From Sinonovacula constricta (lineage: Eukaryota; Mollusca; Bivalvia; Cardiida; Solecurtidae), in the NCBI GenBank assembly GCA_007844125.1, contig CM017556.1, positions 23,653,454 through 23,717,453 on the forward strand: a stretch of DNA of 64,000 nt. The letters run 5' to 3'. The translations under genes were made by a program, and so were the position numbers. Shown piece by piece: positions 5,928-63,071 of the stretch (its first letter is position 1; every line of letters begins with the position of its first letter). The notes below the pieces were generated by a model. The model was not told where the DNA came from, searched no databases, and worked only from the letters and a program-made list of their open reading frames with translations.

Positions 5928-6197
5928 ATGGGCAACGACTGTTCCAATGCGGCAGACGATGACGACTACATTTACTACGAGCACCCACGTCCTGTGAGCG
6001 CCGGTTATTACCGTCGACCAGTGATTGTTGAGCGGAGAGGTATGCCGGTGAGGCTGCCGTACCCTGGCCCTAGGATGACGGCACGTGTTGCACCAGTTAT
6101 CATCCAGACCAGGTATCCTGGCTACTATTACCGTCCTGACTATTTGGGTGATAGAATGGCAAGGGGGAGGTACACGTACAATACTTACTTGACATGA
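5928..6197 (+). CDS. MGNxCS-family Tyr/Arg-rich small protein, copy 1 (89 aa)
   Basis: Function unknown; a family member defined within this window. I start at the internal ATG at 5928, giving MGNDCSNAADDDD, because every paralogue begins at the same residue. The frame is open 12 codons further upstream, but those residues are not conserved. Gly2, Cys5 and Ser6 fit dual N-myristoylation/palmitoylation, so membrane anchoring is inferred. Asp7-14-type acid cluster and YIYY follow, then GYYRRPVIVERR (about 28-39), LPYPGPRM, TRYPGYYYRPDYLGDRM and the conserved end RGRYTYNTYLT. It lacks the RS-repeat linker. It is the only intact plus-strand copy and the most diverged: Asp replaces Gly at position 4, and RRGMPVRL replaces the RRVVPxxM segment. 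An AATAAA lies 15 bases after the stop. Confidence 0.8.
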   Translation: MGNDCSNAADDDDYIYYEHPRPVSAGYYRRPVIVERRGMPVRLPYPGPRMTARVAPVIIQTRYPGYYYRPDYLGDRMARGRYTYNTYLT

Positions 6198-6211
6198 TTA
6201 TACATGTTTGT

Positions 6212-6217
6212 AATAAA
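6212..6217 (+). other. AATAAA polyadenylation signal candidate
   Basis: Canonical hexamer 15 bases downstream of the TGA of the copy-1 gene, on the same strand. That is unusually close to the stop, and would give a very short 3' UTR if used. Confidence 0.45.
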
Positions 6218-6584
6218 GCGGAGTTATTTGGTTTTGAAAATAATTTAAAAGTTGTGTTTGTCAGATTGCGAACTGTGTAACAATGGAAGACATGTAACTT
6301 CATGTACCATCTTGCCATACAGATACTGTAATAGAATATATGAAGTGGCATATGTATCGATGTGGGCAAATAGTTGCTGGAAAACGGGCAAGGTATAGCA
6401 ACTTTATAAGAAAATCCCATTGTGTATGTATAAGTTTTAGTTATATAAGTTATAGATTTAGATATAACGAGATATTTATTAAGATCTGTATTGAGGTAAT
6501 CATGTCCGCATAAAAAACAACTTTTATCTACTGTACATACTGTACATATGTTGTTTTATTTCTAGTTATCATGTATGTACATAA

Positions 6585-6915
6585 GTTCATTATATCTGTT
6601 TTAACTCCCGATGCAGGTGCTTACTGTTAGTTGTTTCACTTTGACGGGATATTTTTATTTACACTGTTTGTTTGATAGAAAAACCTTCAGGAAGTGCGAG
6701 GTTGGAGCGCTCCACAAACCAGGTTTAAGCACCCAAGTTGGCCCTTTTGCCGACTGACCGTTCCAAGGCGGTAACTGATGGTTTTTCTTTTTGTGTGTTA
6801 TGTCTCGTCTCTGTGTTTTTTGTCACATTTACATTTACCTTGTTTGCCTTGGTCTGCAGGTAGATAAAATTTAAATATCTGTGAAAATTTTGATAGGACC
6901 TTTTCTTATTTACCT
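6585..6915 (+). repeat. dispersed repeat family R, copy A (about 330 bp)
   Basis: Shares near-continuous similarity with 62198-62532 (inverted) and partial similarity with 39590-39858, 47881-47995 and 48768-48925. Blocks in order: TTTTAACTCCCGATGCAGG, a Tyr-codon-free AT block, GCGAGGTTGGAGCGCTCC, GGTTTAAGCACCC (B-box-like), a GTCGG..CCGAC hairpin, GTTACCGCC on the opposite strand, CACATTTACATTTACC and GGTAGATAAAATTTAAATATC. It encodes nothing. A SINE-like or MITE-like element is most likely; no clean target-site duplication was seen. Confidence 0.7.
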
Positions 6916-7086
6916 ACTTATATACCAATAGTTAAATGCATCAGTAGACTTGTATGAAGAAATGATTTGAATGTGACTCTGACTGATTGAAGTATGCTGT
7001 ATAAATATTTAGACGTTTTATTGTGACAATAATTCAATATTTTGTTTATCATAATGTCCCATATATAAGCTTATTTATATGTTTTT

Positions 7087-7485
<399 letters not shown>

Positions 7486-9426
7486 ATTAATTAATTCAAT
7501 TGTTATGTTTAAGTGAACTAATACCGACTTATCAGTGTTTTTTGGCTTAAGACTTGCATTGTATTGCGAGGTTGCGTCAACAACTTTTTCAACAATCTCA
7601 GTTTTCTTTATAGTCATTTTCGCCGAAAATCGATTCTTTCATGTATTTTAACCAAACCGCCTGCGTGTATGCTTATCGACAATTCCCCCTTCGTTAAGTA
7701 AACATACTGTACTGTGCAATAAATACATACCATTTCTTGGGTCGTTTCTTTGTTAGACATTCACCGTCATATGTCCTTTTAAATAAATAAATATGAAATA
7801 ACAGTTCACTTTTGAAGCACTTTTGCAAAAGTAAATATGGACTTAAAGCAAAACACCAATCCTCAGACAAAAAAGGGGTGATTATTGAATACATTTTTGT
7901 AAATCAACATCAGAAGTTTGTGTATTCATCGAGTCGAGACATTTAGAGTTAACAAGGCTGTTTCAATTGAAATTTCACTAATCTTCGCTTACCAACACGC
8001 CAATGTTAAAATACATTGTCTGGCATGAAACAAAGCAATTTAGTTACTACAAAGTTATATTTTTGATGAGCTGTGATAAATATTATATAATAAATAAATG
8101 CTGGCATGTGGTATTAATTTATGCAGCTGCTGTACTATTTCTTTTTTAAATCTGAATTAACGTTTATGTTACTGATTTAAACTATATATGCATGCATTTT
8201 GTAAGTAGCAAACACTTAAAGTTGAGCTTATCATAGATAAAGTTTACTTGATAGTATGTTGTTGATGGATAACACGTAGATCACTGTCTTATTTCTCTAA
8301 AATTGTTCAAAACAAAATTAATTAGGTTTTTGTTGGCAGCATATAGTGTATATTTCATACACAAATTTCGCCATATCAATGTACTTTTTGAAATTTTGTA
8401 ATTCGCACGAAGAAAGCAAATATAACCGAGATATAAGAGAAATTTTTGTTGTATTTTTTTACTTATACAAATATTGAACAAACATTAATTTTCTCCTAAT
8501 ATGTAAAATTTTATTACTATGAGTTTTATTCATGAACATTTTCGTTGGATTGATGTATAGTTTGTTTAGTTGTTGTTGTTTTCTAACATTTAAATGGACA
8601 CATTAAACATAATAACGTTTACAGCTTGCGAACACTTGTTAGTAACATACCAAATTTGCTAATGAAATTTGTTTACACACACGTTAATGCATGCATCAAT
8701 GGAGTACTTGCTGTTCAGTAGATGACAAGAGAATGCCGGTATGAAAACATTGGAGTTTTAATTTCATAACCTGAAAAAGGTAAACAATTTGACCGCGATC
8801 GGTTTATATCAATTTTATTGTAATAAACGTAATGCTTTCACTGCAAGATTTTATTATAGTGCAACAATACAAAAGAAAAGAAGATTTTTAAAGACTTTCA
8901 AAAGGTGTATACCTTTCAAGTAATTGATAGCAATGAAATTTAAAACAAAACTTGCTGCAAATCTGATACAAACAAATGATTACATTTTAATATATTTTTC
9001 GTGTTAAGTAACTTCTCAATATACTGTTGTGTTTATTTTTAGCCTTAATTGTGTGACATTTGCAGAAAGTGCACTTAAACTTTTTAAGCACTTTTATCAT
9101 AAGTCATCGGCATGTACCGAAAACAAACTAAAACATGAAAGTACAGTAAAATGTTCATATGTTACGTGTAAACGATCAATAATTCAAAGTTTACTGTTTG
9201 TTTATTTTAAATTTTAAAATAGATTTATGAGAAATTTTAGCAGCGCCCTATATCAAATGTGGGATTATTAAACAGTTGGTTCCAGAACGTTTATATTGGA
9301 CCACAAAACTTCTACGTCTCATATGAAAGGAATAAAAATGTTTTAGAGGATGGCAACCTTATATTTTTATTTCGTTAAAGACAAATGTTACGGTACCAGA
9401 ATGTAATGAATATATACGTATAAAGT

Positions 9427-9428
<2 letters not shown>
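7486..9428. other. non-coding stretch, no gene seen
   Basis: AT-rich. ORFs of 62-66 codons (7694-7894, 8281-8481, 9029-9217) have no recognisable motif and no coding-like composition. No repeat family identified. Confidence 0.45.
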
Positions 9429-9482
<54 letters not shown>

Positions 9483-9485
9483 GAC

Positions 9486-9550
<65 letters not shown>

Positions 9551-9662
9551 GAGAGACAGACAGAGAGAGACAGAGACACAGAGACACAGAAAAAAGACAG
9601 AGAGACAGGGACACAGAGAGAGACAGACAAACAGGCAGGCAGACAGTTAAAGACAGAGACAG
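9429..9662 (+). repeat. compound GA / GACA microsatellite
   Basis: About 40 bp of (GA)n, then mixed GAGA/GACA, then (GACA)n near 9517-9550, then increasingly imperfect CAGAGA, GACACA and CAGGCAGG. Several overlapping long frames (Arg-Glu on plus, Ser-Leu on minus) are produced by the repeat and are not genes. Confidence 0.95.
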
Positions 9663-28373: not shown

Positions 28374-28481
28374 GAATAAAACACCGAATAAAAATGTATT
28401 TATTGTCATATAACTAGTCCCTTAGTTAGAATAAAAGTCCATTTTTGAAAATGAATTAGATGTTGGATATAATTTGTAGTA

Positions 28482-28744
28482 ATGGTAGTAACAGTTGTAG
28501 TAGTAGAAGTAGTAGAAGTTATAGTAGTAGTAGTGGTTGTTGTTGTTGCTGAAGCTGTAGCAGTAGTAGTAGTGGTGGTGGGGGTAGTAGTAGTTATATT
28601 AGTAGTAGTAGTAGTAGTGATAGTGGTAGTAGTAGTAGTTGAAATTATAGTAGTGGTAGTAGTAGTAATAGAAGCAGTGGTAGTTGTTATAGTAGTAGTA
28701 GTAGTAGTAGAAGTAGTAGTAGTAGTAGTGGTGGTGATGGTAGG

Positions 28745-28787
<43 letters not shown>

Positions 28788-28893
28788 AAGTAGTAGACGT
28801 AGTAGTAGTAGTAGTGGTGGTTGTGGTAGTGGTGGTGGTGGTGATGGTGTAGGTAGTGGTAGTGTAGTAGTAGTAGTAGTAGTAGTGGTAGTA

Positions 28894-28930
<37 letters not shown>

Positions 28931-28975
28931 TGGTAGTGGTAGTGGTAGTGGTAGTGGTAGTGGTAGTGGTAGTAA
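28482..28975 (+). repeat. TAG/TGG trinucleotide microsatellite, about 490 bp
   Basis: Long imperfect (GTA)n mixed with GTG and GAA triplets, ending in (GTAGTG)n near 28922-28970. Frames up to 234 codons on the minus strand (poly-Thr, poly-Tyr, poly-Leu in different frames) are entirely repeat-derived and are not called as genes. Confidence 0.95.
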
Positions 28976-29075
28976 AAACAAACAAAAACGTTCTGTGAAC
29001 GAAAGAGTCGATAATTGGTTGCCGTCTCCACAATACAGCAACGTAAAGAAAATTTTTGAGACGCGTGGTTGGTGG

Positions 29076-29076
29076 C

Positions 29077-29105
<29 letters not shown>
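29076..29105 (+). repeat. (GTT)n microsatellite
   Basis: About ten GTT triplets, separated from the TAG tract by about 100 bp of ordinary sequence. Confidence 0.9.
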
Positions 29106-29107
<2 letters not shown>

Positions 29108-32100
29108 CAAAATGAAGCTTAAGAATTGAAAACATTGTAAGGCATATACTTATAAAACTGAATTAAATGGAATTATAATCGAATAAAGCAGTTTCTTAAG
29201 ATCGAAAATGTTGACCACAAAACGCCTGATTGGCTATTTAGTTACGTCTAGATCAAACCCTAAAATGCTTTAGATCATACAGGTTATATGTGTTCTTAGA
29301 GTGGGGCATGTGACATTTGTGGCATTTTCCATTTACTGTTGATCTGTAACAACGTATAAGATAAGAGTTCCATAATGTATTCACAACTTTTGGACCTTTG
29401 GCTCTGCTGATTCGATTACTAGCACGTCTACTTTGAAAAAGAACATTAAGACATGCAAGGCTTTGTGACATGTTTGACAAGTGCTCCTTGAAATGAAAAA
29501 CACTACTATTTGGCTCTGCTTCCGCAATAACAAACCGATCTACTTTTAAACAGAAAATTAAGTTTACATAGCAAATGGCTTCTTGACATCAAGTTTCATG
29601 AAATTAAATTGACGCTTTTTAAATTTTAAAAAACATACAACTTTATAACCATTTAAAATCGTATCCAATGTTGCAGGCTTACAAGGAATTTGCATGACAT
29701 GACAATATATACCCTTCAATCTGATGTAGTTAAAATGTTAAGATTAGTATGATATATGCGAGAAAATAAACGACTTTCTGATAAATAGCATTGGAAAAGT
29801 GTTATATTGTATAGAATCAGGTTTTGATACATACGAACCCATGTCAAATATCATTATATAAGGATATGACTTATAAAAAAACGTCACCGACAATTATGTA
29901 GTAGACTCAAGACTCCACTTTATGTAGTTATTTGTACCATTTGAAACGGTCAAGACTAGCTATTCTGGATAAGTGTGCATATTCAAGGATTTTGCATATA
30001 AAGCTCCCCAAACACGACTGTTATCTATAAATAAATATTTAGTTTGGATTTGTATTACAAAATATAAAGAAAAGTTGAAAATGCACATATTGACTCTTTT
30101 CGTCATTGCTAGCCGGTCTTTGTCGGACAATTAAGATGAACAAGAAATTGAAAATTAATGAGCTTAGTTACTATACATACTCAGCAAAAATACTTGCTTT
30201 GGGCTGACTGCATGTATAACAGTACGTTGAACACTATAAATCATTGAAGTATTGACACACTGTTATTAAGTTTGGAGTTAATCTTCGCGTTCAATAATTA
30301 CAAACATACATCTAAAAGTTTCTTTCACTGTACAAGATCAACCTGCAGATTAAAATTGAATTAAATACCTTATTGAATGTTTTTGTCAGTTTACAGGCAC
30401 AAAGTGTTTTAATCCGAATTTAGTCTTTTCACCCATTAATCCCATGAGCAGATTGTAAAAATGTTTCAAATCTGATGAAGTGCCTTTACTGTCACTTTCA
30501 TCTCAAACCATTGTGTCTAATCTCGCCATGGAAATCTAACTAAATTAAAATACTAGTCACGTGAAATTTAATCTGTTTAAATCTGATTCGCTAAATAGAA
30601 ATGACCCACCAATGCAACTAGACTCCATATTACATGTCGTTTTAACTTTTTTTTCTAGATTTTTTAAGGTTACGGTAGTTAATACGAAAATATCTATTAC
30701 TATGCGTAACAGCGATCAAATTAAACAAAAGGAGCAAAATATAATTGTTCATTCTTCTGATCGATAACACGATCATTATTATGAAGGAAGGACTATAAGG
30801 ACATTTGAACTTCAGCATAAAATTGACATCGTTTTGCTTAAAAAAATAAAACTGTTTAGTTTTGCTTGTGTTTAATATAAAAGCTGTTATGTTTTATTGT
30901 TGTTTTTCTTTTGTTTTATTCTATAGTATTTAAAGCTTTTCAACTTTGCCAATCACATATTACTATAATCAGTACTTTTAATTGGAATGTGGTTACAAAT
31001 ATATTACATAAAAACTCTCCTATCGGAAATTTTTGTAGCTGTAAGTATGCCAGGAAGTGGAAGGGGGGGGGGGGGATTTCGAAAATCTAATGTCAACCAC
31101 AAGAGAATAGTTATTTATAATTTGAACCCGGTGCCGTTTGTATTTGCAAATGCCATTCCTAAGTATACGTGCATGCATGTTATTGTAACCTATTTTGCAT
31201 TGCAAGTGGCAAAATGTTGACATACAGCTTTTAACATGATTGGGAAGTTTTTGGACGGCGCTTATCAGGTTTTGTTTTCTGATGTTTTTTATTTAAATCG
31301 GACCCAAAATGGGGGCAATCGTTACTGTCTGGGCAAGTCTTCTGTGTCTTGTACATGTTGAGTTAACATAAGCTGTTTGTCCAGACAGTGCATGTGTATG
31401 TGTAAGCCACGTGGATGACCTACTTAAAAGAAAAGGAACGTGCAGTGTTTGTTCGAAATACTATTTGTGATCACTTCATCTATGTATGAATAGAAACTGG
31501 TAAACTTTCAAAAGGGGGCGAGATAAATTTGAGTAGCGGAGTGGTCTACTGAGTTTTTAAATCGCGAATCTATGCTGGAAAGAAAAAAAAATTACTATTA
31601 GTAAATTTTATTGTTTAATGGTTACTTTAAACATGTTATTTAAAATTTGATTTTCCTAAAACATTACATTTACACGTGAATTTACTTAATACATTTAAGA
31701 AAACCTCTACTGTTTAAGTCTACATGCTATATCCTGAGTAGTTAAATTCTAAAAATTAATTCATAGGTTAACACAATAATTATAACATTGAATATGACAC
31801 AAATGACCTACTTCACATAAATGAACACGCGCTTTGTGTTTGTTACATTGCACGGGTTCTACGTACGGAAACTTATCAAAAAGGGGATAAATGACATAAA
31901 CTTTTTGCTGCTTGTTTATTTTGTTAATGTGGTGGAAGTAAAGAAGATGGCATACAACGATTCGGCTAAATATTACAATACTTTTACATGCAACTACAGC
32001 AAACCATTGTCTTTTGATTTTTCTTAAACATATCATGGGCACTGTCTTGATTTTAACATATATTATCATAAAGCGTGTCATAAAGCATTTTTAAACCGAA

Positions 32101-33801: not shown

Positions 33802-33813
33802 GGCAAGATTGTA
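33802..33813 (-). promoter_or_regulatory. conserved downstream motif, copy 2 (gene sense TACAATCTTGCC)
   Basis: Lies 85 bases beyond the stop codon. The same 12-mer occurs at comparable distance downstream of the 58-kb and 62-kb genes, and with one change downstream of the 43-kb gene. A GTGCCAAA word sits just before it in copies 2 and 5. It is probably a 3' UTR or cleavage-region element. Confidence 0.45.
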
Positions 33814-33897: not shown

Positions 33898-34422
33898 TCA
33901 AGTCAAGTATGTATTATACGAGTATCGTCGTATCATACTGTCACCAAAATATTCCGGAACGCCTTGGTAGCCGGGATATCTGGCCCGGGGGATCACTGGA
34001 GCGACACCTGCATTTATTCGGGGGCCTGGGTACCGCATACTCGGCGGAACAACTATCCGCTTCACAAAAACTGGTTGTTGTTCATAATAGGTTGTCTCCA
34101 GGTGGTTGTTTTGTGTCCTGGGTGTCCGGAAGTAACTCTTTCGTCGGTCATCCGATTTCGAAGACCGAGATTGAGCGGAGTAGCTGTCCTGTCTGTCACT
34201 TGAAGTCGAAGACCAAGACCATTGGGAGTCAATGTCTCTTCGGTCATCCGACGTCGTAGACCAAGACCGTCCGGAGTAGCTATCTCGTCGGTCTCGCGAC
34301 GTCCTATGCCGGGATCGCTGGGAATAACTGTCCCGTCGGTCATCCAGCCGCCTAGAGCGAGACCGTCGGGGGTAATAATAGTCGTCGTCAACATCGTTGA
34401 TGTTGGTACAACCATTGCCCAT
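33898..34422 (-). CDS. MGNxCS-family Tyr/Arg-rich protein with RS repeats, copy 2 (174 aa)
   Basis: Function unknown. The ATG gives MGNGCTN, a myristoylation/palmitoylation-type start shared by all paralogues. Then come VDDDYYYPRR and about five tandem 16-residue units of the form RSRSRTSDDRRDSYSQ (residues about 19-98). Later units are degenerate: WSWSSTSSDRQDSYSA and QSRSSKSDDRRKSYFR. The conserved half follows: RTPRTQNNHLETTYYEQQP, VKRIVVPPSMRYPGPR, AGVAPVIPRARYPGY and RRYSYNTYLT at the end. The RS units resemble SRPK/CLK-type phosphorylation targets; that is inference. It is the longest paralogue, and its extra length is wholly the repeat. Antisense frames over it are shadows. Its 5' flank contains the shared upstream element twice because of a 265-bp tandem duplication. 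Confidence 0.82.
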   Translation of the reverse strand: MGNGCTNINDVDDDYYYPRRSRSRRLDDRRDSYSQRSRHRTSRDRRDSYSGRSWSTTSDDRRDIDSQWSWSSTSSDRQDSYSAQSRSSKSDDRRKSYFRTPRTQNNHLETTYYEQQPVFVKRIVVPPSMRYPGPRINAGVAPVIPRARYPGYQGVPEYFGDSMIRRYSYNTYLT

Positions 34423-34778
34423 GATTAAGATATGATTTTTTTAAGATGAAGAAAATTGTAAATTCCTGTGCATAATGTAAAATCTGTACATACTATCCAT
34501 CATATCTTTCTCGAAGGGAAGGTAATGTCGACTGAAGCGTTTTCTATGCACGTTGCAATGCAATCCACAATGACACGTATTTGTTTCAACGAAAGTAAAA
34601 AAACAAGATATTTAAATTTATGGACACGATTGCGTTCTTCCTCCTCTCCAGATCCTACACATTATTGTTATTATGCATGGTATCGATTGGTAAACATTTC
34701 ACTATAGTCTTTTCAATCCCTGTTCGTAGAGCAGGTGTTTGATGGTCAAATGTTTTATATATCCTGCACACCTAACGG

Positions 34779-36975: not shown

Positions 36976-39589
36976 ACCATTTTATTTATTTTTGTTAATT
37001 TATCTATATATATAATATAGAACTTATTGGTTGTTTGTATGGAAGATAAGTTAAATTGATCGCTTGTCAATAGGCCTATTTATATAAGGATTTCTTTCCT
37101 GTTCTTATTTACATATCTATCAAAACAACAAAACGGGCTCTTTTTTCGCATTCTTATTGGTTCCAGTTTACAAAAGTTGACTTTCATGAATAAACATAGA
37201 TGGTAATTACAGTTAGATGCACTGATTTCAACATTTTAGTTTGTTCAAATATTAAAGCATTTTAATGATCAATATAAAGGCCATTCAAAGTAAGGTTTAA
37301 TTGAGAGTCAATTTATATCATTATTAACCTCTGGTCGTCTTTACAGACGGCGAAATTTCCCTCGATATCGTTTGTGTACGTATAAAAAGATTATAAAGAA
37401 ACTAATTAATATTTACACAGTCAATTTATATTCGTTGTTAACAGACATCGGCAAACTGTTATTTCTGCTTCACCACGTTTTCAAATTGTATTTACATGAA
37501 TGCAGGCCATTAAGATAGTTCCATTTACGAATATACTTTTATAAAGCAGTTTAAGTCCTTAAACATATATACATGTAGGCATTTAGAAATCTTCTAATGT
37601 TTTGTTTCCTATCTTTTGCCCCGTTTAAACTTTTTACAAATATTTACAAATAACGACAGAATTTTTTAATTAAAAAGTGTCATGATGTCAAAAACGTATT
37701 CAATCCTTTTGTCGTTTATCAGCCAACGGCAATATCCCACTGTGTAGAATTTATGTTAAATATGTTTACATTTTAACCAGGCACAAAATTGTGCATATGT
37801 TCTTGGCAAAAAGTAAGTCCTTGACTGATGATTTTAAAATTAGTTTGACTTTGCAATAAATACATGTAATCGAAAGCATTTGATATACTTATTACTCGTA
37901 TATCTACTCATCATTAAACAGCAATTGAAATTGTCAGTAAGTCTAATTATTTCCCTTTTATGAATAATTCATTACTGAAATAGATTTATTAGTTACATAA
38001 TTGCTTCTATTGCTATTGTCATAAAATAAACTAGTGTTTTACTTGGAGCGTTGACCTTCAGTTCAAGGACATATAAACGTACCTTGTGCTTGCTGGGTGA
38101 GGCTGAAGTAAATATTTACGGGGTTTTATCATAATCTTATATAGTTTTTTCGATTGACAACAAAATTATAATAAATTAATCCTATACTTTCCTTGAAGAG
38201 TTAAAATGAATTGTTAGTTTTAGTGTGAAATCGATCTTGCTTTGGTACATATATACCAAATTAAGATTCCAAAATATTTGCATTATTTACATGCTGACTT
38301 AGCTAATTCTATAAGAAGTGATAATTCCACAAGAACTGATTTGTTAATGTCATATTGCGTTTCTTATAAGAAATATCGGAGTTTTTTTTTTACATTTTTC
38401 TAGCAACAACGATCGTTTTGATCTTAGCCAACAGTGAAGTCGTAGTATCTTCCAAATAAATTCGACAAGGCACAAAGCAGGCATTAGAGGAAAAAATTCC
38501 AAACAATTAATTAATCTTTTAATATGACTACAATTAAACTATCATTTACACAAATTATATATAATTTAATAATATAGGTTGCGTTATTCCAACTTAATAA
38601 AGTATTCCAAGTAAACATAGGACTTATACCATCAGCCTATATTTTTCGGTTATGGTATTAAGCAGAGTTCTTGAGATTTGAAATGTTTAAAATGAAAAAG
38701 ATCTATCTGTGAAGCGGAATAAGCCAATACGCTGTCCAATAGAGTTCGCCTTAGATACTTGGTTATTTAATGCAATAACGACTCGTTCTTGAAAGAGAAC
38801 TGCTGACTATCGTCGATATCTTGTCAAACAGAATATCGGAATAAAAAACACTTAACCCGTCGGCATTCCTGTCAATAACAATGACAATTTTAATTTATGT
38901 TCCTCGCTAAAACAAAGTTAAAGTACTCATCAAGATTCAATGTTTGTTTTTATATCTTATTTTCCATGTTTTCTTTTCTTTTATGTATTTATCAGTTTTC
39001 ACAGCAATTAAATTACAGATGCATTGAGCGTCAGATTGAAAGAGTCGTGTTGGTCATATTCATCTCTTACACAAAAAACATATTTGAACCGTTTGTTAAA
39101 AAGTGTTTTATTATAACTAAATACAATTCCAGAATAATTTCTATTGTTTCTTTTTTTTTTGTCTACCACCGATTTCTTCATGTTTCGGCTTTTACTTCTT
39201 ATTCAGAATCGCGCGCCTCTTGCCAGATAGACATTTTCGCCCTTAAAATTCTAATCAACCATTTGTTTTCCATTTAACCACTTGATTTTTATCAAATCTA
39301 AAGATTTCCAGTGATAAGTATTAATTGTGCAGTTCAGCATCATTTGGCTAACAGGTTTTCATCAATAAATTATGTCCTTGGCGTTTCCTAGCAAAATGAT
39401 TTGTTTTGATGTCTTCGTGGTTGTAAACATCTTAATACTTAACTTATTAAACCGGAAATGAGGCTGACCGCCAACGATGATTGATATATACGACGTTGGT
39501 AAAAGGTTTCTTTGGGGCAATCATTTTCCAATTTTTTACTGTTATTTTATAAACTGATAAAGAACTATTACTCATGTCAACCAATGATA
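36658..39589. other. non-coding stretch, no gene seen
   Basis: AT-rich. A (TTTA)n run lies at 36943-36976. The 126-codon frame at 38897-39277 is Phe/Ile/Tyr-rich from base composition and shows no domain. No gene called. Confidence 0.45.
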
Positions 39590-39858
39590 AAGAAATAAGA
39601 AAATGTCCTGAAAGAATTACCACATATATATAAAACTGAAATACGTCTTGACAAAGGAAAACAGGGTAAATGTAAAAGTGATAAAAACACAAAGACGAAA
39701 CATAACACATAAAAAGAAAATAATATGCAGTTACCGCATTAGAACGATCAGTCGGCAAAAGGACCGACTGGGGTGCTTAAATCTGGTTTGTGGAACACTC
39801 TAACCTCTCAGTTCCTGACCGTTTTTTCTAACAAACAAATAGTGTAAATATACATATA
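39590..39858 (-). repeat. dispersed repeat family R, copy B
   Basis: Inverted relative to the 6.6-kb copy. Shares AATAAGAAAA, GGTAAATGTAAA, CATAACACA, GTTACCGC, the GTCGGCAAAAGGACCGAC hairpin, GGGGTGCTTAAA, GGTTTGTGGA and TTTTTCTAACAAACA in the same order. More diverged than copies at 6.6 and 62.2 kb. A 103-codon minus frame overlapping it is not credible. Confidence 0.7.
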
Positions 39859-41104
39859 CCAAAAGTTCCAAACGAGTGAGTGGTTTGAAATAAAACAGAG
39901 CTGTGAGGTCATATGTCAGCGTTAACTATCAGGTATTTGCTTTATTAAGGGTAGGTGCTGCAGAGTTAATCAGTTAGATCATTTAAGCAAAGAAAGGATT
40001 ATCTATAGTAAGAATATCGTCAAAATAGCGTGACGTTGAAAAAAGAGCCTCTATAATATGGACTAACTTGACCAATAAGACTCATTCATTGTTCAGAGCT
40101 AATAGATGTTCATGAATGTTACATGATCTGTTGTTTTTATTTTATAATGAATGTGACACTCCTTTGGAAATTATTACGGAATTAAGTTTAAAAAAACAAG
40201 TATAATTATAATTCTGATGCAAAATATGAGATCTAATTATTTGTTATACAAAGAATTACATAAAATGAAAACATGGAAAGCTTAAGATTAAGATATTCCG
40301 GTCAATGTAAAAGTAAAAAAGTGTTGATACATTACATAAAAATAGAGCAAACCCTACAGCATTGGAACCTGCAGAACCAAAGAAAACATCACGTCCTCTC
40401 GCCAAATATAAGAATGTTTCATGCAAAAGGCATCATTAGCATCGGTTAGACTTTAATCGTGTTAACATAATATATTATGCAGACAAAGTAAGAGACTATC
40501 TCTTTCAAAATTATGCATAGTTAGTAAAATACCGGAATCTCACTTCATTCACTCATAAACATGCCCTATTTAAAAGTATTCACCCATGCTCTGGCATTTT
40601 TGTAAATTTTCAGCTGAAAGTTCAAAGAAATTAAAAGTCTATCTGTCCGTTTCATTCATTACAAACTTCAAAGCAAATGATAGTCATTGTTATATAATAC
40701 TCTTTTGTAAATTGTTCAATGTGCACTTTAAGAGCGGAAAGGTTACTTTGATCTTATAGAAAACAGCGCGCATGAGCACCTTAGCTTTAAATACAATGCG
40801 AATCAAATAGGTGTTTACAATCATCAATTGAATGCTAGCTGAGATAGCTAGTATATGTCTCCTCATTGTATTTTATCCCACCATCTCTGTAAATATCGGT
40901 TGATATAACCCGTGTGATAAAGATGAGCTTTATTAACCGATATTCGCGCACCTGCTCTAAGCCAGACTACTTTTTTGACGAAACTATCAGGAATGTTTAC
41001 GAGAATGAAACTCATCTATCCCGTAATTATGCTTGTGGTCACCCCAAAAATGTCCATAATATAAAGATTGGTTAAATAGAGCAAAAGAGGCTATTAAAAA
41101 AAAG
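39859..41104. other. non-coding stretch, no gene seen
   Basis: No gene or repeat recognised. Confidence 0.4.
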
Positions 41105-43502: not shown

Positions 43503-43514
43503 GGCAAGATTATA
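43503..43514 (-). promoter_or_regulatory. conserved downstream motif, copy 3 (gene sense TATAATCTTGCC)
   Basis: 102 bases beyond the stop; one base different from the TACAATCTTGCC seen after copies 2, 5 and 6. Confidence 0.4.
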
Positions 43515-43615: not shown

Positions 43616-43999
43616 TCAAGTTAAATATGTATTGTACGAGTATCTCCCGCGTATCATTCCGTCATCAAGATAGCCGGGACCGTCGTAGAAGCCGGGATAC
43701 CTAGCCTGGGGTAGGATTGGGGCGATACTTGTTGCCATTCTAGGGCCTGGGTACCGCATTCCCGTGGGGACGACTATCCTCTCCACTACCATCGGCTGTT
43801 GCTTATAACCGGTTTTCACCGGCAGGTATTTTGGAGTCCTATGCCGCCGGTAGTACCTTTCCCGTCGGTCATCCGACATCCTTGACCGGGATCGCCGGGA
43901 ATAGCTATCCCGTCGGTTATCCGACGTTCTAGACCGAGACCTTTGGGAGTTATAATAGTCGTAGTCATCTTCGGTTAAGTTAGTACAACCATTGCCCAT
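43616..43999 (-). CDS. MGNxCS-family Tyr/Arg-rich protein with RS repeats, copy 3 (127 aa)
   Basis: Function unknown. Starts MGNGCTNLTEDDYDYYNSQ, with Gly2, Cys5 and Thr6 fitting the dual-acylation context. Two 16-residue RS units follow (RSRSRTSDNRRDSYSR and RSRSRMSDDRRERYYR, about residues 20-51), then RHRTPKYLPVKTGYKQQP, MVVERIVVPTGMRYPGPR, IAPILPQARYPGFYDGPGYL, and MIRGRYSYNTYLT. Intermediate in length between the repeat-free copies and copy 2, which has about five units, so it captures a step in repeat growth. It lies in the same orientation as copies 2, 4, 5 and 6. The upstream element lies 443 bp 5' and the downstream motif 102 bp 3'. Confidence 0.84.
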   Translation of the reverse strand: MGNGCTNLTEDDYDYYNSQRSRSRTSDNRRDSYSRRSRSRMSDDRRERYYRRHRTPKYLPVKTGYKQQPMVVERIVVPTGMRYPGPRMATSIAPILPQARYPGFYDGPGYLDDGMIRGRYSYNTYLT

Positions 44000-44441
44000 G
44001 ATGAATGTTGATCTTCTTTTTAGTTTTAGGAAACTTCAATTTCTATACAGCATTTACCTTAATACAATCCGTCATAGCTTTCTGAAATGTCCATTTTAAA
44101 TCAACCTTCAACCTTTTTTTTGTTCGAAGCATACAAATTCATTCATGAAACTTTTTTTTTTCAAAAATCAAGAACGTTTAACTACATTTTTGCAATTCGA
44201 AGTTTTTTTTCTTAATTTTAACGACACATCAGAAGTATATATTCCAGTTTTTAAAAGCTCGTATACGTTCTTGCCTTTATCTTAACGCCATCCCTTTTAT
44301 CCAATTTAGACACAACAGCACTGCTTACCATCGTTTAATATACATGCCACTAGTTTCATTAACTGTTTGATGCACAGGTGTCGATGGTCCATTGAGTTGT
44401 AAATCTCTCATTGGTTTATTGCCATGTTTTGTAAACATAGT

Positions 44442-47400: not shown

Positions 47401-47880
47401 CATCTTATTATATTCTTTGCCTACACGAGCTGTACTGCCTGTTTACCTGCAGTTATTAGTTACACGAGTCGTATGCTGGAGGTAAATAACCGTCTGTTTG
47501 ATATTTAAATGCCCTTAAATCCATCAGAAACGGATTCATCATCAGTTACCAGTACAAAAGCAAGAAATGTATAGTCTAGTTAGAGTCTTTTAAAACTTTT
47601 TAACATTGAGTGTTATCTCGTATAATCGCATAAAAATTCTCCCTGAACATCTAATGAACTAAATTCCCAGCCAGGTGAACGACCTGATTAACTTAATCTG
47701 ATCTGACATTTCGCTGTGATGTATTTGAAAAGCAAAAAGTAAACACAACATGCAAGTAAGCGGCAATACATTTACTGATTGTGTGTCTCGTAAAATAAAG
47801 CTATTCCACTTCAGAAAAAAAGGCATGATCATTTTATCACGTTTGAATGACAAATCACATGTTTTAAATATTGAACATAG
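44471..47880. other. 5' flank of copy 3, then non-coding stretch
   Basis: The first 350 bp or so are homologous to the copy-2 flank. Beyond about 44.8 kb I see no gene and no repeat. The 75-codon minus frame at 46673-46900 is uninformative. A CAAACAAACAAACAG run lies near 45668. Confidence 0.4.
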
Positions 47881-47995
47881 TTCTCGTCACTGTGTTTTTG
47901 TCACATTTACATTTACTATGTTTGCCTTTGTCTACAGGTAGATAAAATTTAAATATCTGTGAAAATTTTGAAAGGACCTTTTCTTATTTACCTTT
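47881..47995 (+). repeat. dispersed repeat family R, copy E (terminal part only)
   Basis: Closely matches the last 110 bases of the 6.6-kb copy: CTGTGTTTTTGTCACATTTA, TTTGCCTTTGTCTACAGG, TAGATAAAATTTAAATATCT and CCTTTTCTTATTTACC. The rest of the element is absent. Confidence 0.75.
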
Positions 47996-48767
47996 TCATT
48001 GTTGTGTTGCGTACTTTTTACTTACAACTGGGTTATAAGTTCTTCAATTAAAAAGATGATGTGTTAAGACATTTTTAAACGCTGAAATACATTGACATGA
48101 AATAACGAAGCATATAGCGTAAGTTTTCTATTGAAAATATCCTATTTACAAACCAAGAATATTGACATAGCTTATTTTTTTTGCAAGAATTTTGGTGAAC
48201 ACAACAAGTTATTTAAATAACTGAATAAAATCCTGAATATGGCTGAGAAGTCGAGGATTTGGGGTTTGTATTAAATATGTATCAAACTCGTATCCAACGA
48301 AGTTTTGCATCGATTAACGAAAAAAGCAGACGATAGATTAAATAATTACATTCACATCATTTCGTTTTCTCTGTATAGACACAATAACGCCTTTGAATAT
48401 ATGTGTTAATAAAGACCTATTTGACATATGATAACTCAATTCAATCTCTCTGTTTACAGAAAATCAGCAGTTTATTTATGCTGTTGTACTACGGATCTTA
48501 ACGGACCCAAATTAGATGTTTACACGAGTACTTAGCTTGTATAGCTCCTTTATTGAATAAAATGCTTGTTTTTCTGTTTACCTATCAAGTGATTTTTGTA
48601 TTTATTTACTCAAGATTTTGCATATGCCAGATTAATAAAATCAAATTATATGTTATTGTGATAAGTTAATAACTTCGCTGGTTGGTGGGTTTTTCATTGC
48701 TTGGTCGTTTGGTTGTTGGTAAGCTAAGCTTAGGCTTTAGCTAAAATAATGGTATACACTTGCATGT
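47996..48767. other. non-coding stretch
   Basis: No gene or repeat recognised between the two R-family fragments. Confidence 0.35.
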
Positions 48768-54275: not shown

Positions 54276-54605
54276 TCAAGTCAAATAAGTATTGTAGGAA
54301 TATCTCCCGCGAATTGTTCTATTATCAAAATAGTCTGGACCTTTGTAGAAGCCAGGATACCTGGCATTGGAGTACATTGGTGCGAAACCTGTCGTCATAA
54401 TAGGGCCGGGGTATCTCATCGTCGCCGGAACAACTCTCCTCTCCACAATCACCGGCCTTCGGTAATAACCACCGGTCACCGAATGGTAATTGGGCGTCTT
54501 GGGCCGTCGTTTTTTGCTCTCCGGTCGGTATTCTGGCGTCCTTGACCGCCGGGAGTAATAATAATAGTCGTCATCTTCAGTGTAACTGGAACAACCATTG
54601 CCCAT
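54276..54605 (-). CDS. MGNxCS-family Tyr/Arg-rich small protein, copy 4 (109 aa)
   Basis: Function unknown. MGNGCSSYTEDDDYYYYSRRS gives the acylation-type start, acid run and Tyr run. The linker is RTPEYRPESKKRRPKTPNYH, with two TP(E/N)Y words suggesting a partial duplication of a different unit from that in copies 2 and 3. The conserved half follows: GGYYRRPVIVERRVVPATMR, YPGPIM, APMYSNARYPGFYKGPDYFD and IRGRYSYNTYLT. No RS 16-mers. The upstream element is 466 bp 5'. The downstream TACAATCTTGCC motif found after copies 2, 5 and 6 is not recognisable. The plus-strand frame of similar length is a shadow. Confidence 0.84.
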   Translation of the reverse strand: MGNGCSSYTEDDDYYYYSRRSRTPEYRPESKKRRPKTPNYHSVTGGYYRRPVIVERRVVPATMRYPGPIMTTGFAPMYSNARYPGFYKGPDYFDNRTIRGRYSYNTYLT

Positions 54606-55070
54606 ATTTTATGGATGACGTTCCTCAACATGTAGCAAAAGATTATATCAGGCTATTTTTGTAATATCCTACATAATTTTGTGACAATCCGTTGCATTTC
54701 CTCTTATGACATCACTTTTTTCTAAAGATATAGTGTGTATATCCATTAAAAGCAAAATCTATGTGCAATAGCACTAATTAACACACTATAGTTTTAAACA
54801 AATAGGTAAAATATCCCTCATTAAACCTTCCCTATCATCACAACATACAGAAATACTTAGACTACGTTTTCCTAATCATATCTTCACCACACTCCTTAAG
54901 CTGCTGAATCCGACGCTGTTAATCGTAAGATAATGTTTCCCACTGACAGTTAAAGTACATTTGAATATAGTTTTCAATCCTATACCAAACATATCAAAGA
55001 TATGATCAAGGGCGAATCAATTATTCGCCTTCTTTTGAAGACAGGTTAGAAATGTGTGTGTTATACATTG
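54606..55070. other. 5' flank of copy 4
   Basis: AT-rich; no separate gene. Lies between the ATG and the conserved upstream element. Confidence 0.4.
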
Positions 55071-56839: not shown

Positions 56840-56845
56840 TGTGTT

Positions 56846-56930: not shown

Positions 56931-56978
56931 TTGTGTCGGGTTTTTTTCGAGCTTAAAATGCATGTAGTTATTCATTAC

Positions 56979-57252
56979 CAACCGGTTTTGCTAGTATGAC
57001 AAGCTTATAGCTCCAACCGGTTTTGCTAGTATGACAAGCTTATAGCTCCAACCGGTTTTGCTAGTATGACAAGCTTATAGCTCCAACCGGTTTTGCTAGT
57101 ATGACAAGCTTATAGCTCCAACCGGTTTTGCTAGTATGACAAGCTTATAGCTCCAACCGGTTTTGCTAGTATGACAAGCTTATAGCTCCAACCGGTTTTG
57201 CTAGTATGACAAGCTTATAGCTCCAACCGGTTTTGCTAGTATGACAAGCTTA
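56979..57252. repeat. 35-bp minisatellite, about 7.8 identical copies
   Basis: Unit starts ACCGGTTTTGCTAGTATGAC and ends GCTTATAGCTCCA; copies begin at 56981, 57016, 57051, 57086, 57121, 57156, 57191 and 57226. The seven full units appear identical, and the eighth ends after AAGCTTA. Lack of divergence indicates recent expansion or ongoing homogenisation. Each unit contains the palindromes AACCGGTT and AAGCTT. Confidence 0.97.
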
Positions 57253-58091: not shown

Positions 58092-58103
58092 GGCAAGATT
58101 GTA
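58092..58103 (-). promoter_or_regulatory. conserved downstream motif, copy 5 (gene sense TACAATCTTGCC)
   Basis: 73 bases after the stop, preceded by AAAAAGTGCCAAAGTAGG, which parallels the GTGCCAAA word of copy 2. Confidence 0.45.
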
Positions 58104-58175: not shown

Positions 58176-58460
58176 TCAAGTCAAGTAAGTATTGTACGAG
58201 TATCTTCCCCTGGCCATTCTGTCATCATAATAGTCGGGACCGTCGTAAAAGCCGGGATATCTGGCCCTGGTAATGATCGGAGCAGCACCAGCTGTCATCA
58301 TACGACCTGGATACGGCATCATCGTCGGGGCAACTCTCCGTTCTACAAGGACTGGCCGTCGATAATAGCCGGTACTCACCGGGCGGTACTGGGGCGTCCT
58401 GGGCCGTCGGGAGTAGTAATAGTAGTCGTCGTCGGAGACGTTGGAGCAACCATTGCCCAT
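58176..58460 (-). CDS. MGNxCS-family Tyr/Arg-rich small protein, copy 5 (94 aa)
   Basis: Function unknown. This is the simplest and most regular member. MGNGCSNVSDDDYYYY (1-16) combines the acylation context with an Asp/Tyr cluster. Then come SRRPRTPQYRPVSTGYYRRP, VLVERRVAPTMMPYPGRMM, AGAAPIITRARYPGFYDGPD and YYDDRMARGRYSYNTYLT. About 15 Tyr and 14 Arg in 94 residues give a basic, aromatic-rich, probably disordered protein with no membrane span or secretion signal. Any membrane association would rest on the lipidated N-terminus. The sequence 5' of the ATG, GGCTTTCTAACACAG, is a plausible splice acceptor, so a non-coding first exon is possible. Its 5' flank is closely related to that of copy 6. 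Confidence 0.86.
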   Translation of the reverse strand: MGNGCSNVSDDDYYYYSRRPRTPQYRPVSTGYYRRPVLVERRVAPTMMPYPGRMMTAGAAPIITRARYPGFYDGPDYYDDRMARGRYSYNTYLT

Positions 58461-58942
58461 GACTGTACTTGGGGCTGTGTTAGAAAGCCTATCAGATAAT
58501 AATTCGACACGTTTTGAAGTATCCGACTAGTTCCATTATGTGAGATAAAGAAATGTTAAATCCATTTTGCTTCACCACCCCATAACTTTACAAGTGTGTT
58601 CAGAAATATCTGTTTAAAAGATGATAATAAACTGAAACCATGAACTTATGTAACGAATATTATAATTTTGTCAATTCTTTTAATAATTATAAACAGGTAA
58701 TTAAATGACGCAATTATCCTTTCCACTTTTTTCCTAGTAACAGTAATAAACACGAATCCATCAAAAGTGACAGTTGTCTGAAATACATCAGTTGTATAAC
58801 TTTAAATCATAAAGTTCATATTGTATGTTACACTCGGATGGGCATTTGAAGGTTGATTTCTTCAACTGTTAAAAATCATTGACAAATACCGGATCAATAA
58901 GTTAAGAAGCTAAGGTGTAAGACGGGGTTGTGGTAATAAACA
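58461..58942. other. 5' flank of copy 5
   Basis: No separate gene. Similar to 63072-63565 upstream of copy 6, for example ACATCAGTTGTATAACTT against GCATCAGTTGTATTACTT. Confidence 0.5.
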
Positions 58943-60099: not shown

Positions 60100-60230
60100 T
60101 AAACTATCAACTGGATCTCAGCCTGTTAAAAAGTGATCAAGTTTTGGAAACTAGAGAATATCACGACCAGGCAGCTCAGCTCAAGATCAAACAGTTCCGA
60201 GAGAAACTGTACGATCAGATGTTGTTTTAA
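60100..60230 (+). CDS. terminal-exon-like open frame, unknown product
   Basis: A plus-strand frame without its own start reads NYQLDLSLLKSDQVLETREY, then HDQAAQLKIKQFREKLYDQM, then LF and a TAA stop at 60228-60230. The last 30 residues look like an amphipathic helix or coiled coil (Leu, Lys, Glu, Gln rich). The DNA there is nearer 45-50% G+C, unlike its AT-rich neighbours. An AATAAA follows only six bases after the stop (60236-60241). This fits a final exon of a spliced gene or a retained exon fragment. The upstream splice acceptor is not obvious (candidates ATCTCAG at about 60121 and TTCTTTAAG at about 60080). Family not recognised. Confidence 0.35.
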
Positions 60231-62197
60231 ATATAAATAAAGTAACAGTTTATTATAAAAATGGTTATATATGTACCATGATAAGAGTTTAATGGTATTC
60301 TGTTTTAATAGCCGTTTATGTTATAATGTCTTCAGTTTGTATTTATGTACTAAGAATAGCATCAAGAGCATGCATTCATTTCAAGTATGTCGACAATATC
60401 TGCACGCTAGTTACATGTAAATCATAATGAAAATTAAACACGATAAATCTATGGTGTTAAATTGTAACCGCTAAATGATTTTGCTAATTATTTTTAATAA
60501 ACTGTCTCGAATTTAAATGACAAGATTCGCGGATTTGTAGTTACTGGCTTTATAGTTCATTCATGAACATATATTTGTATGCGTGTCCGACAATAAATAC
60601 ACGGTTTACAATATCACATTCAATACTCACTATCTCTCAATTCATTCTCACGATTAATAAATTCTCTGCATATGTGACTGTCATACATACTGACGCTCGC
60701 ATTTAACTTGCACTTTTAGTGTACTGTTACAGTTGTTTTTAAAATGGCTGGTGATTAGGAATATCCATCAATAAAGACATTTCAGTTGGGACACTTGATA
60801 AAGTGTGTGTTAAATGACCCGATGGTAGTGTAGGCACCCCTGATTCACGTGAAAAAAATAACAGTCCTCGGTTGATAGAAATTTCTTTGGCGGTACGTTA
60901 AACGCTAATCAACCATCAAAAATGGGATGACTAAGCAAGGGTCCAATGTCCAGACTAGTTCTTTGGTTAGGTTGGCGTCATTTCCAAATTAACATAGGTA
61001 ACTTTATGTTTCTCGATTTAGACACGTCAAGTTGGAAAGGGTGTCTGACTGCAAAACCTGAAATAGCTTCTAGTTCTATAGAGCGTATCCATGTGAGATC
61101 TATTCATGTGAAAGTTGAATTGAAAAAAGACTTCTTCGGGTGGGCAAGAAGAGATAACTGGAATGCAAATGAGAAGGGGCTTTTCTAACAGAATCATACA
61201 GAAATTTGCATATGCTGTTTGCGATTGGCTGTATGCGTAAAAAACAGGTAAGTACAAGAAATCTCATACTAGAACTCTTATCCCAAAGTATGTTTAAATG
61301 AGTAACGACTGTTCTCAAACGGACCCTTACAGGGAAGCATTAGATTCTAGCAATTTATTATAAAAAGGAAGATTTACTTTTTTTCTTAAATATCAGTGAG
61401 ATGAACTTTTAATTGAATGTTCATGCTGTTGTTGTACAGAGTCAAAACATAACAGAAACATGTTTTGAAGAACTACCACGTGACTTTTCACAGCCTAATA
61501 GGCAAAAACATCTTAATAAATTACGCAATGCCGATCTGTTTTATTGAAATCCCGGCATTTTAAAAAGTTTTGTAATGAACGAACCATGATCTGCTCCTTA
61601 TGAATATTTAAAAATCATTTCTTTAAAATATACTAGCTTAAAGTGTAGGATGAAACTTTAAAACAAAAGCATTATTAATTTTAAATAATATAACTACAAC
61701 CACATATAAAGTACTACGATAACTGTCAAAAACGTGTTAAGTGAAGTTTAAAATAAGCTAAAACGTTGTATACACAAAATTAAACATAGATTTCTTTGAC
61801 ACGAGTATACAAATATATTTGAATATTCAGTACATGTATATTGGTTACACAATAAGTTTATTTCTTTGTTATTGACTTGTACATGTCAGTCGAGTGGGAC
61901 TTTGAAAGCTTGATTTCTTTCTGAGATCTTTGAATGAACACAAGACGGATACAAGATTATTGGAATGTTTAAGTATTAAAATGATCGTTTTGATGTCCTG
62001 ACAACAATATTTTAATTTTCATAATGAATCTAAAGTGCATGGTTTTTAATCTTTGTTCGCGGCTATCTATTCTTTTGGCCAAATTCTAAGCATGAGCATC
62101 TGGTATCGTTATTAATATCAAGTTGTGTTTCCATTTTAGCGGGCAGGGGAAATTATAACACAGCATTTACATATGACTTACTCCACAGCTATATAAT
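60231..62197. other. non-coding stretch
   Basis: No gene recognised; the frames at 60946-61318 overlap on both strands. GTGGGACTTTGAAAGCTTGA near 61896 resembles a word in the copy-5 5' flank (near 58840), hinting at the remains of a further, deleted family unit. Confidence 0.35.
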
Positions 62198-62532
62198 AGG
62201 TAAATAAGATAGGGTCATATCAAAATTTCCACAGATATTTTAATTTTATCTACCAGTAGACAGAGGCAAACAAGGTAAATGTAAATGTAACAAAAACACA
62301 GAGACGAGACGTAACACACATGAAGAAAAACCATCAGTTACCGCCTTGGAGCGGTCAATCGACAAAAGGGCCGACTGTGGTGCTTAAACCTGGTTTGTGC
62401 AGCGCTCCAACCTCGCACCTCCTGAAGGTTTTTCTATCAAACAAACAGCGTAAATAGAAATATCCCGTCAAATTGAAACAACTAACAGTAAGCACCTGCA
62501 TCGGGAGTTAAAACTGATACAATGATCTGTTT
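62198..62532 (-). repeat. dispersed repeat family R, copy D (about 335 bp)
   Basis: Inverted relative to, and collinear over its full length with, the 6.6-kb copy: GGTAAATAAGATAGGGTC, AGGCAAACAAGGTAAATG, CAGTTACCGCCTTGGAGC, the GTCG/CGAC hairpin, GGTGCTTAAACCTGGTTTGT, GCACCTCCTGAAGGTTTTTC and GCACCTGCATCGGGAGTTAA. It lies about 250 bp downstream of family gene copy 6, in the same relative orientation as copy A downstream of gene copy 1. Confidence 0.8.
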
Positions 62533-62672
62533 ATAAGTCAGAAGCAAAATGTTTCATAGAATGATTTACACAGAGAATATAGACATCAATAACATGTGGA
62601 AATAACAGCATTTATAAACAAAGTGATGACTTGCAGTGCAAAATGGTTTATTTTACACGCATTAGTTTGCCT

Positions 62673-62684
62673 GGCAAGATTGTA
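62673..62684 (-). promoter_or_regulatory. conserved downstream motif, copy 6 (gene sense TACAATCTTGCC)
   Basis: 97 bases after the stop; an exact match to the motif after copies 2 and 5. Confidence 0.45.
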
Positions 62685-62780
62685 TTAATATTTTAAACTT
62701 TTGCACTTTAACTTAAATCCGAAGAAACAATAAGCTTCAATTATTTCGAAAACATCGAACTTTGTATTTGGCATGTAAGA

Positions 62781-63071
62781 TTAAGTCAAGTAAGTATTGT
62801 ACGAGTATCTTCCTCGCGTCATTCTGTCATCAAAATATTCGGGGCCGCCGTAGATACCTGGATACCTGGCCCGGGCGACAACTGGCGCAACACCTGGTAC
62901 CATCCTATGACCAGGGTGCCGCATCATCGTCGGAGCAACTCTGCGCTCCGCAATCATTGGCCGTTGGTAAACGTCGGTGGTCATCGAGCGGTGCTGCGGA
63001 TCGCGATGCCGCTGGGAATAATAATTGTAGTCGTCGTCGACATCAGTACCGTTGGAACAACCATTGCCCAT
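62781..63071 (-). CDS. MGNxCS-family Tyr/Arg-rich small protein, copy 6 (96 aa)
   Basis: Function unknown. I start at the ATG giving MGNGCSNGTDVDDDYNYYSQ, although the frame is open seven codons upstream (MKNTITI), because the Gly2/Cys5/Ser6 start is shared by all paralogues. The rest reads RHRDPQHRSMTTDVYQRP, MIAERRVAPTMMRHPGHRMV, GVAPVVARARYPGIYGGPEY and FDDRMTRGRYSYNTYLT. The central YPGPR becomes HPGHR and the GYYRRP word becomes DVYQRP. This copy is thus somewhat diverged in the middle but invariant at both ends. A CTAACAG acceptor-like word ends 21 bases 5' of the ATG. The plus-strand frames over it are shadows. Confidence 0.84.
   Translation of the reverse strand: MGNGCSNGTDVDDDYNYYSQRHRDPQHRSMTTDVYQRPMIAERRVAPTMMRHPGHRMVPGVAPVVARARYPGIYGGPEYFDDRMTRGRYSYNTYLT

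What the first reader, a model, noticed from the sequence alone, without database searches (positions are those of the whole stretch)
5928..63071. Undescribed local gene family of putatively dual-acylated, Tyr/Arg-rich small proteins
Six intact single-exon paralogues (89-174 aa) and two pseudogenes occupy 57 kb. All begin MGN(G/D)C(S/T) and end (R)RY(S/T)YNTYLT, and both ends are far more constrained than the middle. Gly2 with Ser/Thr6 and Cys5 is the established N-myristoylation plus palmitoylation context. The rest has no signal peptide, membrane span or domain I recognise. A lineage-restricted family that sits on the inner face of membranes and presents a Tyr/Arg-rich, probably disordered chain is a plausible new system.
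Basis: partly seen in the sequence, partly recalled or inferred. Interest (0 to 1): 0.85.

Follow-up and report, generated by a model that had tools for sequence, protein, structure and literature searches.

The report
Orphan cluster of lipid-anchored disordered proteins
Six neighbouring genes in an animal genome encode a family of small proteins with no recognised relatives; selection preserves them, they look built to be lipid-anchored to the inside of a membrane, and most carry a possible microRNA switch.

Summary
Six ORFs without introns in the coding part (89-174 aa) share MGN(G/D)C(S/T) starts and RY(S/T)YNTYLT ends. Purifying selection acts on them: omega is 0.31, and omega = 1 fits far worse, so these are genes. 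The 'two pseudogenes' are one broken locus whose 5' end is repeated in tandem. Two protein searches of the 1.22 Gb host assembly found the family only here. Pfam, PDB and viral contigs show no relative; one NCBIfam match, to a splicing factor, looks compositional; the large protein collection returned only g3 itself. New here: 5 of 6 3' flanks share ATCTTGCC, which contains a miR-31 seed site, and the genome has a miR-31-clan precursor. AlphaFold gives no structure (mean pLDDT 48). Best reading: N-myristoylated and palmitoylated, disordered peripheral membrane proteins, perhaps under microRNA control. The design resembles Leishmania HASPs, without evidence of homology. Acylation, expression and clade restriction are inferred or untested. 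An orphan gene family of moderate interest; not shown to be a new system.

The parts
5928..6197 (+). g1, intact ORF, 89 aa, MGNDCS...RYTYNTYLT
33898..34422 (-). g2, intact ORF, 174 aa, with an expanded RS/DRRDSYS-type repeat centre
43616..43999 (-). g3, intact ORF, 127 aa; identical over the ORF to P0001 from a 1045-nt public contig
54276..54605 (-). g4, intact ORF, 109 aa; lacks the 3' ATCTTGCC element
58176..58460 (-). g5, intact ORF, 94 aa
62781..63071 (-). g6, intact ORF, 96 aa
20700..21545 (+). Limits approximate
6309..6316 (+). 3' element ATCTTGCC downstream of g1 (contains miR-31 seed site)
33802..33809 (-). 3' element ATCTTGCC downstream of g2
43503..43510 (-). 3' element ATCTTGCC downstream of g3
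58092..58099 (-). 3' element ATCTTGCC downstream of g5
62673..62680 (-). 3' element ATCTTGCC downstream of g6
5869..5886 (+). Weakly supported conserved 5' block (ATGnnGGATA...) of g1
34486..34503 (-). Weakly supported conserved 5' block of g2
44058..44075 (-). Weakly supported conserved 5' block of g3
54657..54674 (-). Weakly supported conserved 5' block of g4
58512..58529 (-). Weakly supported conserved 5' block of g5
63128..63145 (-). Weakly supported conserved 5' block of g6

Best explanation
A genuine, locally duplicated family of small protein-coding genes. Shown: intact ORFs under purifying selection, duplication as DNA together with flanking sequence, a conserved 8-mer in the 3' flank of five genes that contains a miR-31 seed site, and no other copy found in the host assembly. 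Inferred: Met is removed, N-myristoyltransferase acylates Gly2, Cys5 is then palmitoylated, and the protein stays on the cytoplasmic face of a membrane. The chain (acidic Tyr patch, then a basic Arg/Tyr/Pro stretch, then an invariant tail) remains disordered and acts as a scaffold: Tyr and Arg give multivalent contacts, and the fixed tail RY(S/T)YNTYLT docks one partner. Copies differ in length mainly through the central repeat spacer. miR-31 may lower the level of at least some of the mRNAs; g4 would escape.
For: Conserved ORFs and termini. Omega 0.31 with 2*delta lnL 74.9 over all columns, 66.0 over shared columns and 47.6 over the last 78 columns. 15 of 15 pairs with dN/dS below 1, 0.21-0.51 over all columns. 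GC3 0.51-0.61 in a 33% GC window. Flank homology, e.g. g5/g6 alignable over 1222 nt at 63%. ATCTTGCC is the only 8-mer present in at least 5 of 6 3' flanks; 0 of 2000 random sets of six 200-nt pieces share any 8-mer that widely. A miR-31/mir-72 precursor in the genome with an AGGCAAGAUG arm. NMT C-terminal-domain exons in the genome. No predicted structure, mean pLDDT 48. In Leishmania oHASPs Gly2 and Cys5 are predicted acylation sites (passages of PMC2946902), and in HASPB the two acylations are needed for normal plasma-membrane delivery (passages of PMC3491706).
Against: No acylation predictor or experiment was run. No transcript evidence: P0001 comes from a contig of unknown kind, DNA or RNA. 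With only six rows AlphaFold often gives a poor model, so disorder is suggested, not shown. The miR-31 match was noticed after the fact; I estimate a few per cent for a chance match to some conserved miRNA seed (my arithmetic, no call). In g1 the only AATAAA within 400 nt lies at +15, before the site at +113, so that site may lie outside the mRNA. g4 has no site, and the duplex energy for g6 is unremarkable (19 of 200 shuffled miRNAs as good). One NCBIfam hit to the U2AF large subunit (1 of 6 members, E 0.00087) is probably RS composition, but it is a hit.
Confidence: 0.55

Rival explanations
1. The ORFs are exons of a larger spliced gene, so the MGN start is internal or follows an upstream coding exon, and acylation is irrelevant.
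For: In-frame open stretches precede the ATG in some copies (g1 25 codons, g5 22 codons). 5' introns cannot be excluded.
Against: The in-frame peptides upstream differ between copies, while conservation begins at the ATG with a G2/C5/S-T6 pattern in 6 of 6. The upstream frame of g4 closes 1 codon before the ATG and that of g2 6 codons before it.
Confidence: 0.08
2. RS/Arg-Tyr-rich nuclear or RNA-binding proteins rather than membrane proteins; the MGN start is only a conserved N-terminus.
For: g2 and g3 carry SRSR...DDRRDSYS repeats; one member hits U2AF_lg in NCBIfam at E 0.00087; net charge +3 to +11.
Against: RS repeats are absent or very short in four of six copies. No RRM or other Pfam domain up to E 1 in any of six. 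Fixed Gly2, Cys5 and Ser/Thr6 would have no obvious reason in a nuclear protein (inference).
Confidence: 0.15
3. A sperm, ciliary or flagellar membrane protein family: the acyl start targets the flagellar membrane, and local duplication reflects reproductive evolution.
For: [quoted passage not shown] Small, fast-evolving clustered genes are common among sperm proteins (recalled).
Against: No expression data at all. Tail conservation and omega 0.31 do not suggest rapid adaptive change.
Confidence: 0.12
4. Non-functional or repeat-derived ORFs kept by chance.
For: Repeat-rich surroundings in which I saw no host gene by eye (no domain scan of the flanks was run); one copy is decayed.
Against: omega = 1 rejected (2*delta lnL 74.9). 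Found at only one locus in 1.22 Gb, unlike a mobile repeat. Upstream and downstream homology between copies, unlike retrocopies.
Confidence: 0.02

Closest known systems
Leishmania HASP/oHASP proteins (hydrophilic acylated surface proteins, LmcDNA16 and OHL loci)
   Same: Gly2 and Cys5 at the start (oHASP), conserved N- and C-termini, divergent repeat-bearing hydrophilic centre that varies in length, multicopy locus, taxonomically restricted (passages of PMC2946902 and PMC3491706).
   Different: Different organism and no homology claimed. Composition is Tyr/Arg/Pro-rich, with an invariant aromatic tail. Surface exposure is known for HASPB, not expected here.
SH4-type dual-acylated start (Src-family kinases, Vac8)
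   Same: An acylated N-terminal segment that holds a protein on the cytoplasmic face (passages of PMC3491706).
   Different: No kinase, armadillo or other Pfam domain follows.
MARCKS-type myristoylated disordered proteins (recalled)
   Same: Disordered, basic, myristoyl-anchored (recalled).
   Different: Tyr/Arg-rich instead of a Lys/Phe effector region (recalled); no Pfam match.

Membership tests
Dual-acylated (N-myristoyl + S-palmitoyl) proteins | Gly at position 2, Ser/Thr at 6, nearby Cys | tested here: met
   6 of 6 have M1 G2 N3 x C5 (S/T)6; the consensus itself is recalled
Dual-acylated (N-myristoyl + S-palmitoyl) proteins | N-myristoyltransferase in the genome | tested here: met
   NMT_C exons on contig C13, 3 of 3 matches over cut-off
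Dual-acylated (N-myristoyl + S-palmitoyl) proteins | Acyl groups demonstrated, membrane location lost on G2A | not testable with these tools
   needs metabolic labelling or imaging
HASP/oHASP family | Conserved termini with variable repeat centre in a multicopy locus | tested here: met
   architecture only
HASP/oHASP family | Sequence homology to HASP proteins | tested here: inconclusive
   No direct comparison with a HASP was made; no Pfam match, and the protein collection returned only g3 itself. Not filed as a HASP.
U2AF large subunit (TIGR01642) | RNA-recognition motifs beyond the RS region (recalled) | tested here: not met
   1 of 6 members hits at E 0.00087, but no Pfam domain in any of the six up to E 1
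miR-31 targets | Seed site conserved and cognate miRNA present | tested here: met
   TCTTGCC in 5 of 6 3' flanks; precursor found; conservation is between paralogues only
miR-31 targets | Site lies in a transcribed 3' UTR and represses | not testable with these tools
   needs RNA-seq and a reporter assay

The most novel reading that the evidence does not exclude
A lineage-specific set of membrane-tethered Tyr/Arg 'sticker' chains that condense on the inner face of a membrane, sharing one docking tail (RY(S/T)YNTYLT) for a common partner, with central repeat length tuning reach and miR-31 setting dosage: a HASP-like architecture arrived at independently in an animal.
Probability: 0.15. Interest if true: 0.7.

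Novelty: new variant of a known kind. Interest (0 to 1): 0.45.

Why it matters
Orphan gene families are common, but few offer so compact a set of testable parts: an acyl anchor, a repeat spacer of variable length, a nearly invariant nine-residue tail and a predicted microRNA switch, in six natural variants. If the acylation is real, it would be an animal example of the acylated-start, variable-middle design known from kinetoplastids, and the tail would be a ready bait for finding an unknown partner.

Tried and rejected
Second pseudogene: only one degenerate locus found; the weak match at 40938-41021 was taken as chance. Members elsewhere in the genome: the g2 search gave 21 matches, 8 in the window and 13 outside, all 13 at E 0.147 or weaker on C18, C16, C13, C12 and C8; these were taken as compositional and not pursued, except that I read 600 bases of the L017 flank. 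These searches score only the best candidates, so small remote relatives could be missed. Viral origin: viral contigs gave 17 pattern matches, 0 confirmed. Known family: Pfam 0 of 6; PDB best E 0.66 by profile and 0.9 by one sequence, judged chance; NCBIfam U2AF_lg and aprA (0.065), one member each, judged compositional. PHROGs and PADLOC were not searched. Retrogene copies: disfavoured, since upstream and downstream DNA is shared between copies. Splice sites next to the ATG: looked for by eye; none conserved in all copies. The 5' block as a functional element: kept as weak (18-mer score 113.1 against a maximum of 105.5 in 20 shuffles, but 12-mer 86.5 against a maximum of 87.5). Read-through of the g3 stop suggested by P0001 (TGA as W): taken as an effect of the code used by the gene caller; g6 ends in TAA. 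Literature: searches found no paper on such a family in the library held (4, 0, 0 and 1 papers listed, none on the subject by title and abstract; 'MGNGCS' and 'MGNGCT' in 0 papers). Passages of PMC7678851 matched miR-315 and miR-317, not miR-31. Searches were read as listings only, apart from the papers named with passages.
Full report
What is there. Six open reading frames lie at 5928-6197 (+), 33898-34422, 43616-43999, 54276-54605, 58176-58460 and 62781-63071 (all -), 89 to 174 codons. All six start MGN(G/D)C(S/T) and end RY(S/T)YNTYLT. Thirty columns are invariant in the six-way alignment. Identity over all pairs is 77/90 in the first six residues, 103/172 in columns 7-19, 33/59 in columns 20-100 (mostly gaps), 466/870 in columns 101-160, 196/250 in the last 17 columns and 130/135 in the last nine. 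The difference in length comes from a central repeat of the type SRSR..DDRRDSYS, long in g2, shorter in g3 and nearly absent in the others. The proteins are basic (pI 9.2-10.0), 9-16% Tyr and 14-17% Arg, with no hydrophobic stretch of membrane-span type.

A seventh copy at about 20.7-21.5 kb is broken: a roughly 57-nt piece of its 5' end is repeated in tandem, the frame has stops, and downstream it reads TACAATCGTGAA where five of the intact copies have the ATCTTGCC element.

Are these genes. Pairwise Nei-Gojobori dN/dS over all columns is 0.21-0.51, below 1 in 15 of 15 pairs. A codon model gives omega 0.309 for all columns, 0.307 for columns shared by all six and 0.349 for the last 78 columns; fixing omega at 1 costs 37.5, 33.0 and 23.8 log-likelihood units. 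The best topology differed between the free and fixed fits. G+C at third positions is 0.51-0.61 in a window of 33% G+C. The frames are therefore maintained as protein. g5 and g6 align over 1222 nt at 63%, including about 750 nt upstream, and g2 and g3 share upstream stretches, so the copies arose by DNA duplication rather than retroposition.

How far the family extends. In the host assembly (1.22 Gb, 177 contigs) the g5 protein finds the six ORFs and the broken copy and nothing else (8 matches, all in the window). The g2 protein gives 21 matches, 8 in the window; the best of the 13 outside has E 0.147. A third search with the g3 C-terminal part did not complete. A motif scan of 60 kb on either side adds nothing. 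Pfam 0 of 6. NCBIfam: U2AF_lg in 1 of 6 members at E 0.00087 and aprA in 1 of 6 at 0.065, both probably compositional. PDB best E 0.66 by profile and 0.9 by single sequence. In about 5.8 billion proteins one hit, P0001, which equals g3 over the whole ORF and differs at one residue upstream of its start, from a 1045-nt contig of unknown kind; only the 7989 candidates sharing most words were scored there. Two further searches with the C-terminal part gave none (1 and 1922 candidates), but they did not recover P0001 either, whose length lies outside their limits, so they count for little. Viral contigs: none confirmed. None of these collections is a eukaryote reference set, so clade restriction is untested.

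A regulatory element. Within 200 nt after the stop, ATCTTGCC is the only 8-mer shared by at least five of six copies (g1, g2, g3, g5, g6; not g4). Of 2000 random sets of six 200-nt window pieces, 0 share any 8-mer in at least five; 27 share some 7-mer, 3 of them one with three or more kinds of letter. A motif of width 12 scores 108.2 against a maximum of 87.1 in 20 shuffles. TCTTGCC is the complement of miR-31 positions 2-8 (seed and family recalled; arm sequence). The genome has one mir-31 match just above the gathering score (51.2 against 51 bits), better matched by the mir-72 family of the same clan (63.6 bits), with the arm AGGCAAGAUGUUGGCAUAGCUGA. The best duplex in the 3' flank covers the site in 5 of the 5 copies that have it; as good an energy is reached by 2, 1, 0, 5 and 19 of 200 shuffled miRNAs for g1, g2, g3, g5 and g6, and by 62 of 200 for g4, which has no site. 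An AATAAA follows the site in g2, g3, g5 and g6, but in g1 the only one within 400 nt lies before it. The link was noticed after the fact and is a prediction; conservation is between paralogues, not species. In a mussel haemocyte study mir-31 and mir-72 are listed in a table of responses to immune challenge (one passage of PMC7773633); nothing is inferred from that. A 5' block (ATGnnGGATA) lies 59-81 nt before the start in six copies, but its support is weak.

How it most likely works. The start fits the Gly2 / Ser-Thr6 context of N-myristoylation (recalled) with Cys5 for palmitoylation. In Leishmania oHASPs a Gly2 and a Cys5 are predicted as the two sites (passage of PMC2946902); in L. major HASPB loss of myristoylation leaves a reporter in the cytosol and loss of palmitoylation leaves it near the Golgi (passages of PMC3491706; that paper names the palmitoylation mutant C3S, although its own S3, S4 and T6 numbering puts the cysteine at 5). 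The host genome encodes an NMT. AlphaFold on the six-row alignment gave mean pLDDT 48.1, pTM 0.11 and no secondary structure, in keeping with disorder, though a shallow alignment alone could do this. I therefore infer a lipid-anchored, disordered chain whose invariant tail is a docking peptide and whose Tyr/Arg content allows multivalent contacts (sticker behaviour of Tyr and Arg recalled; one search was read as a listing only). Shown: genes, selection, shared element, no other copy found in the genome. Inferred: acylation, membrane, disorder, docking, condensation, miR-31 control.

Comparison. The architecture is that of Leishmania HASP/oHASP proteins: conserved ends, variable hydrophilic repeats, dual acylation, multicopy locus, narrow distribution. 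It is a likeness of design; homology was not tested directly, and membership is not claimed.

Verdict. A new orphan family of a recognisable kind, well supported as genes and weakly supported as to function. Interest 0.45.

Noticed in passing
About 15-25 kb beyond the right end of the window (window coordinates about 78900-89350; loci L036-L037): A Maverick/Polinton/adintovirus-like element: ORFs resembling polymerase B, an adenovirus-type protease and capsid proteins, judged by eye; partly masked. Observed only.
   Followed up: no
window 6587-6924, 62190-62525, 39578-39857, 47880-48004: A dispersed repeat (matches of 113-338 nt, 77-94% identical) lies about 390 nt downstream of g1 and about 250 nt downstream of g6.
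   Followed up: no
window 56978-57252: A perfect tandem repeat with a 35-nt period about 900 nt downstream of g5.
   Followed up: no
window 28409-29149 and 7170-7439: Long simple repeats give spurious ORFs made of runs of V, T, L, Y or YI.
   Followed up: no
upstream of g1-g6: Short upstream ORFs precede the start in several copies (e.g. from the ATGnnGGAT block), with no conserved peptide seen; possible translational control (read by eye).
   Followed up: partly
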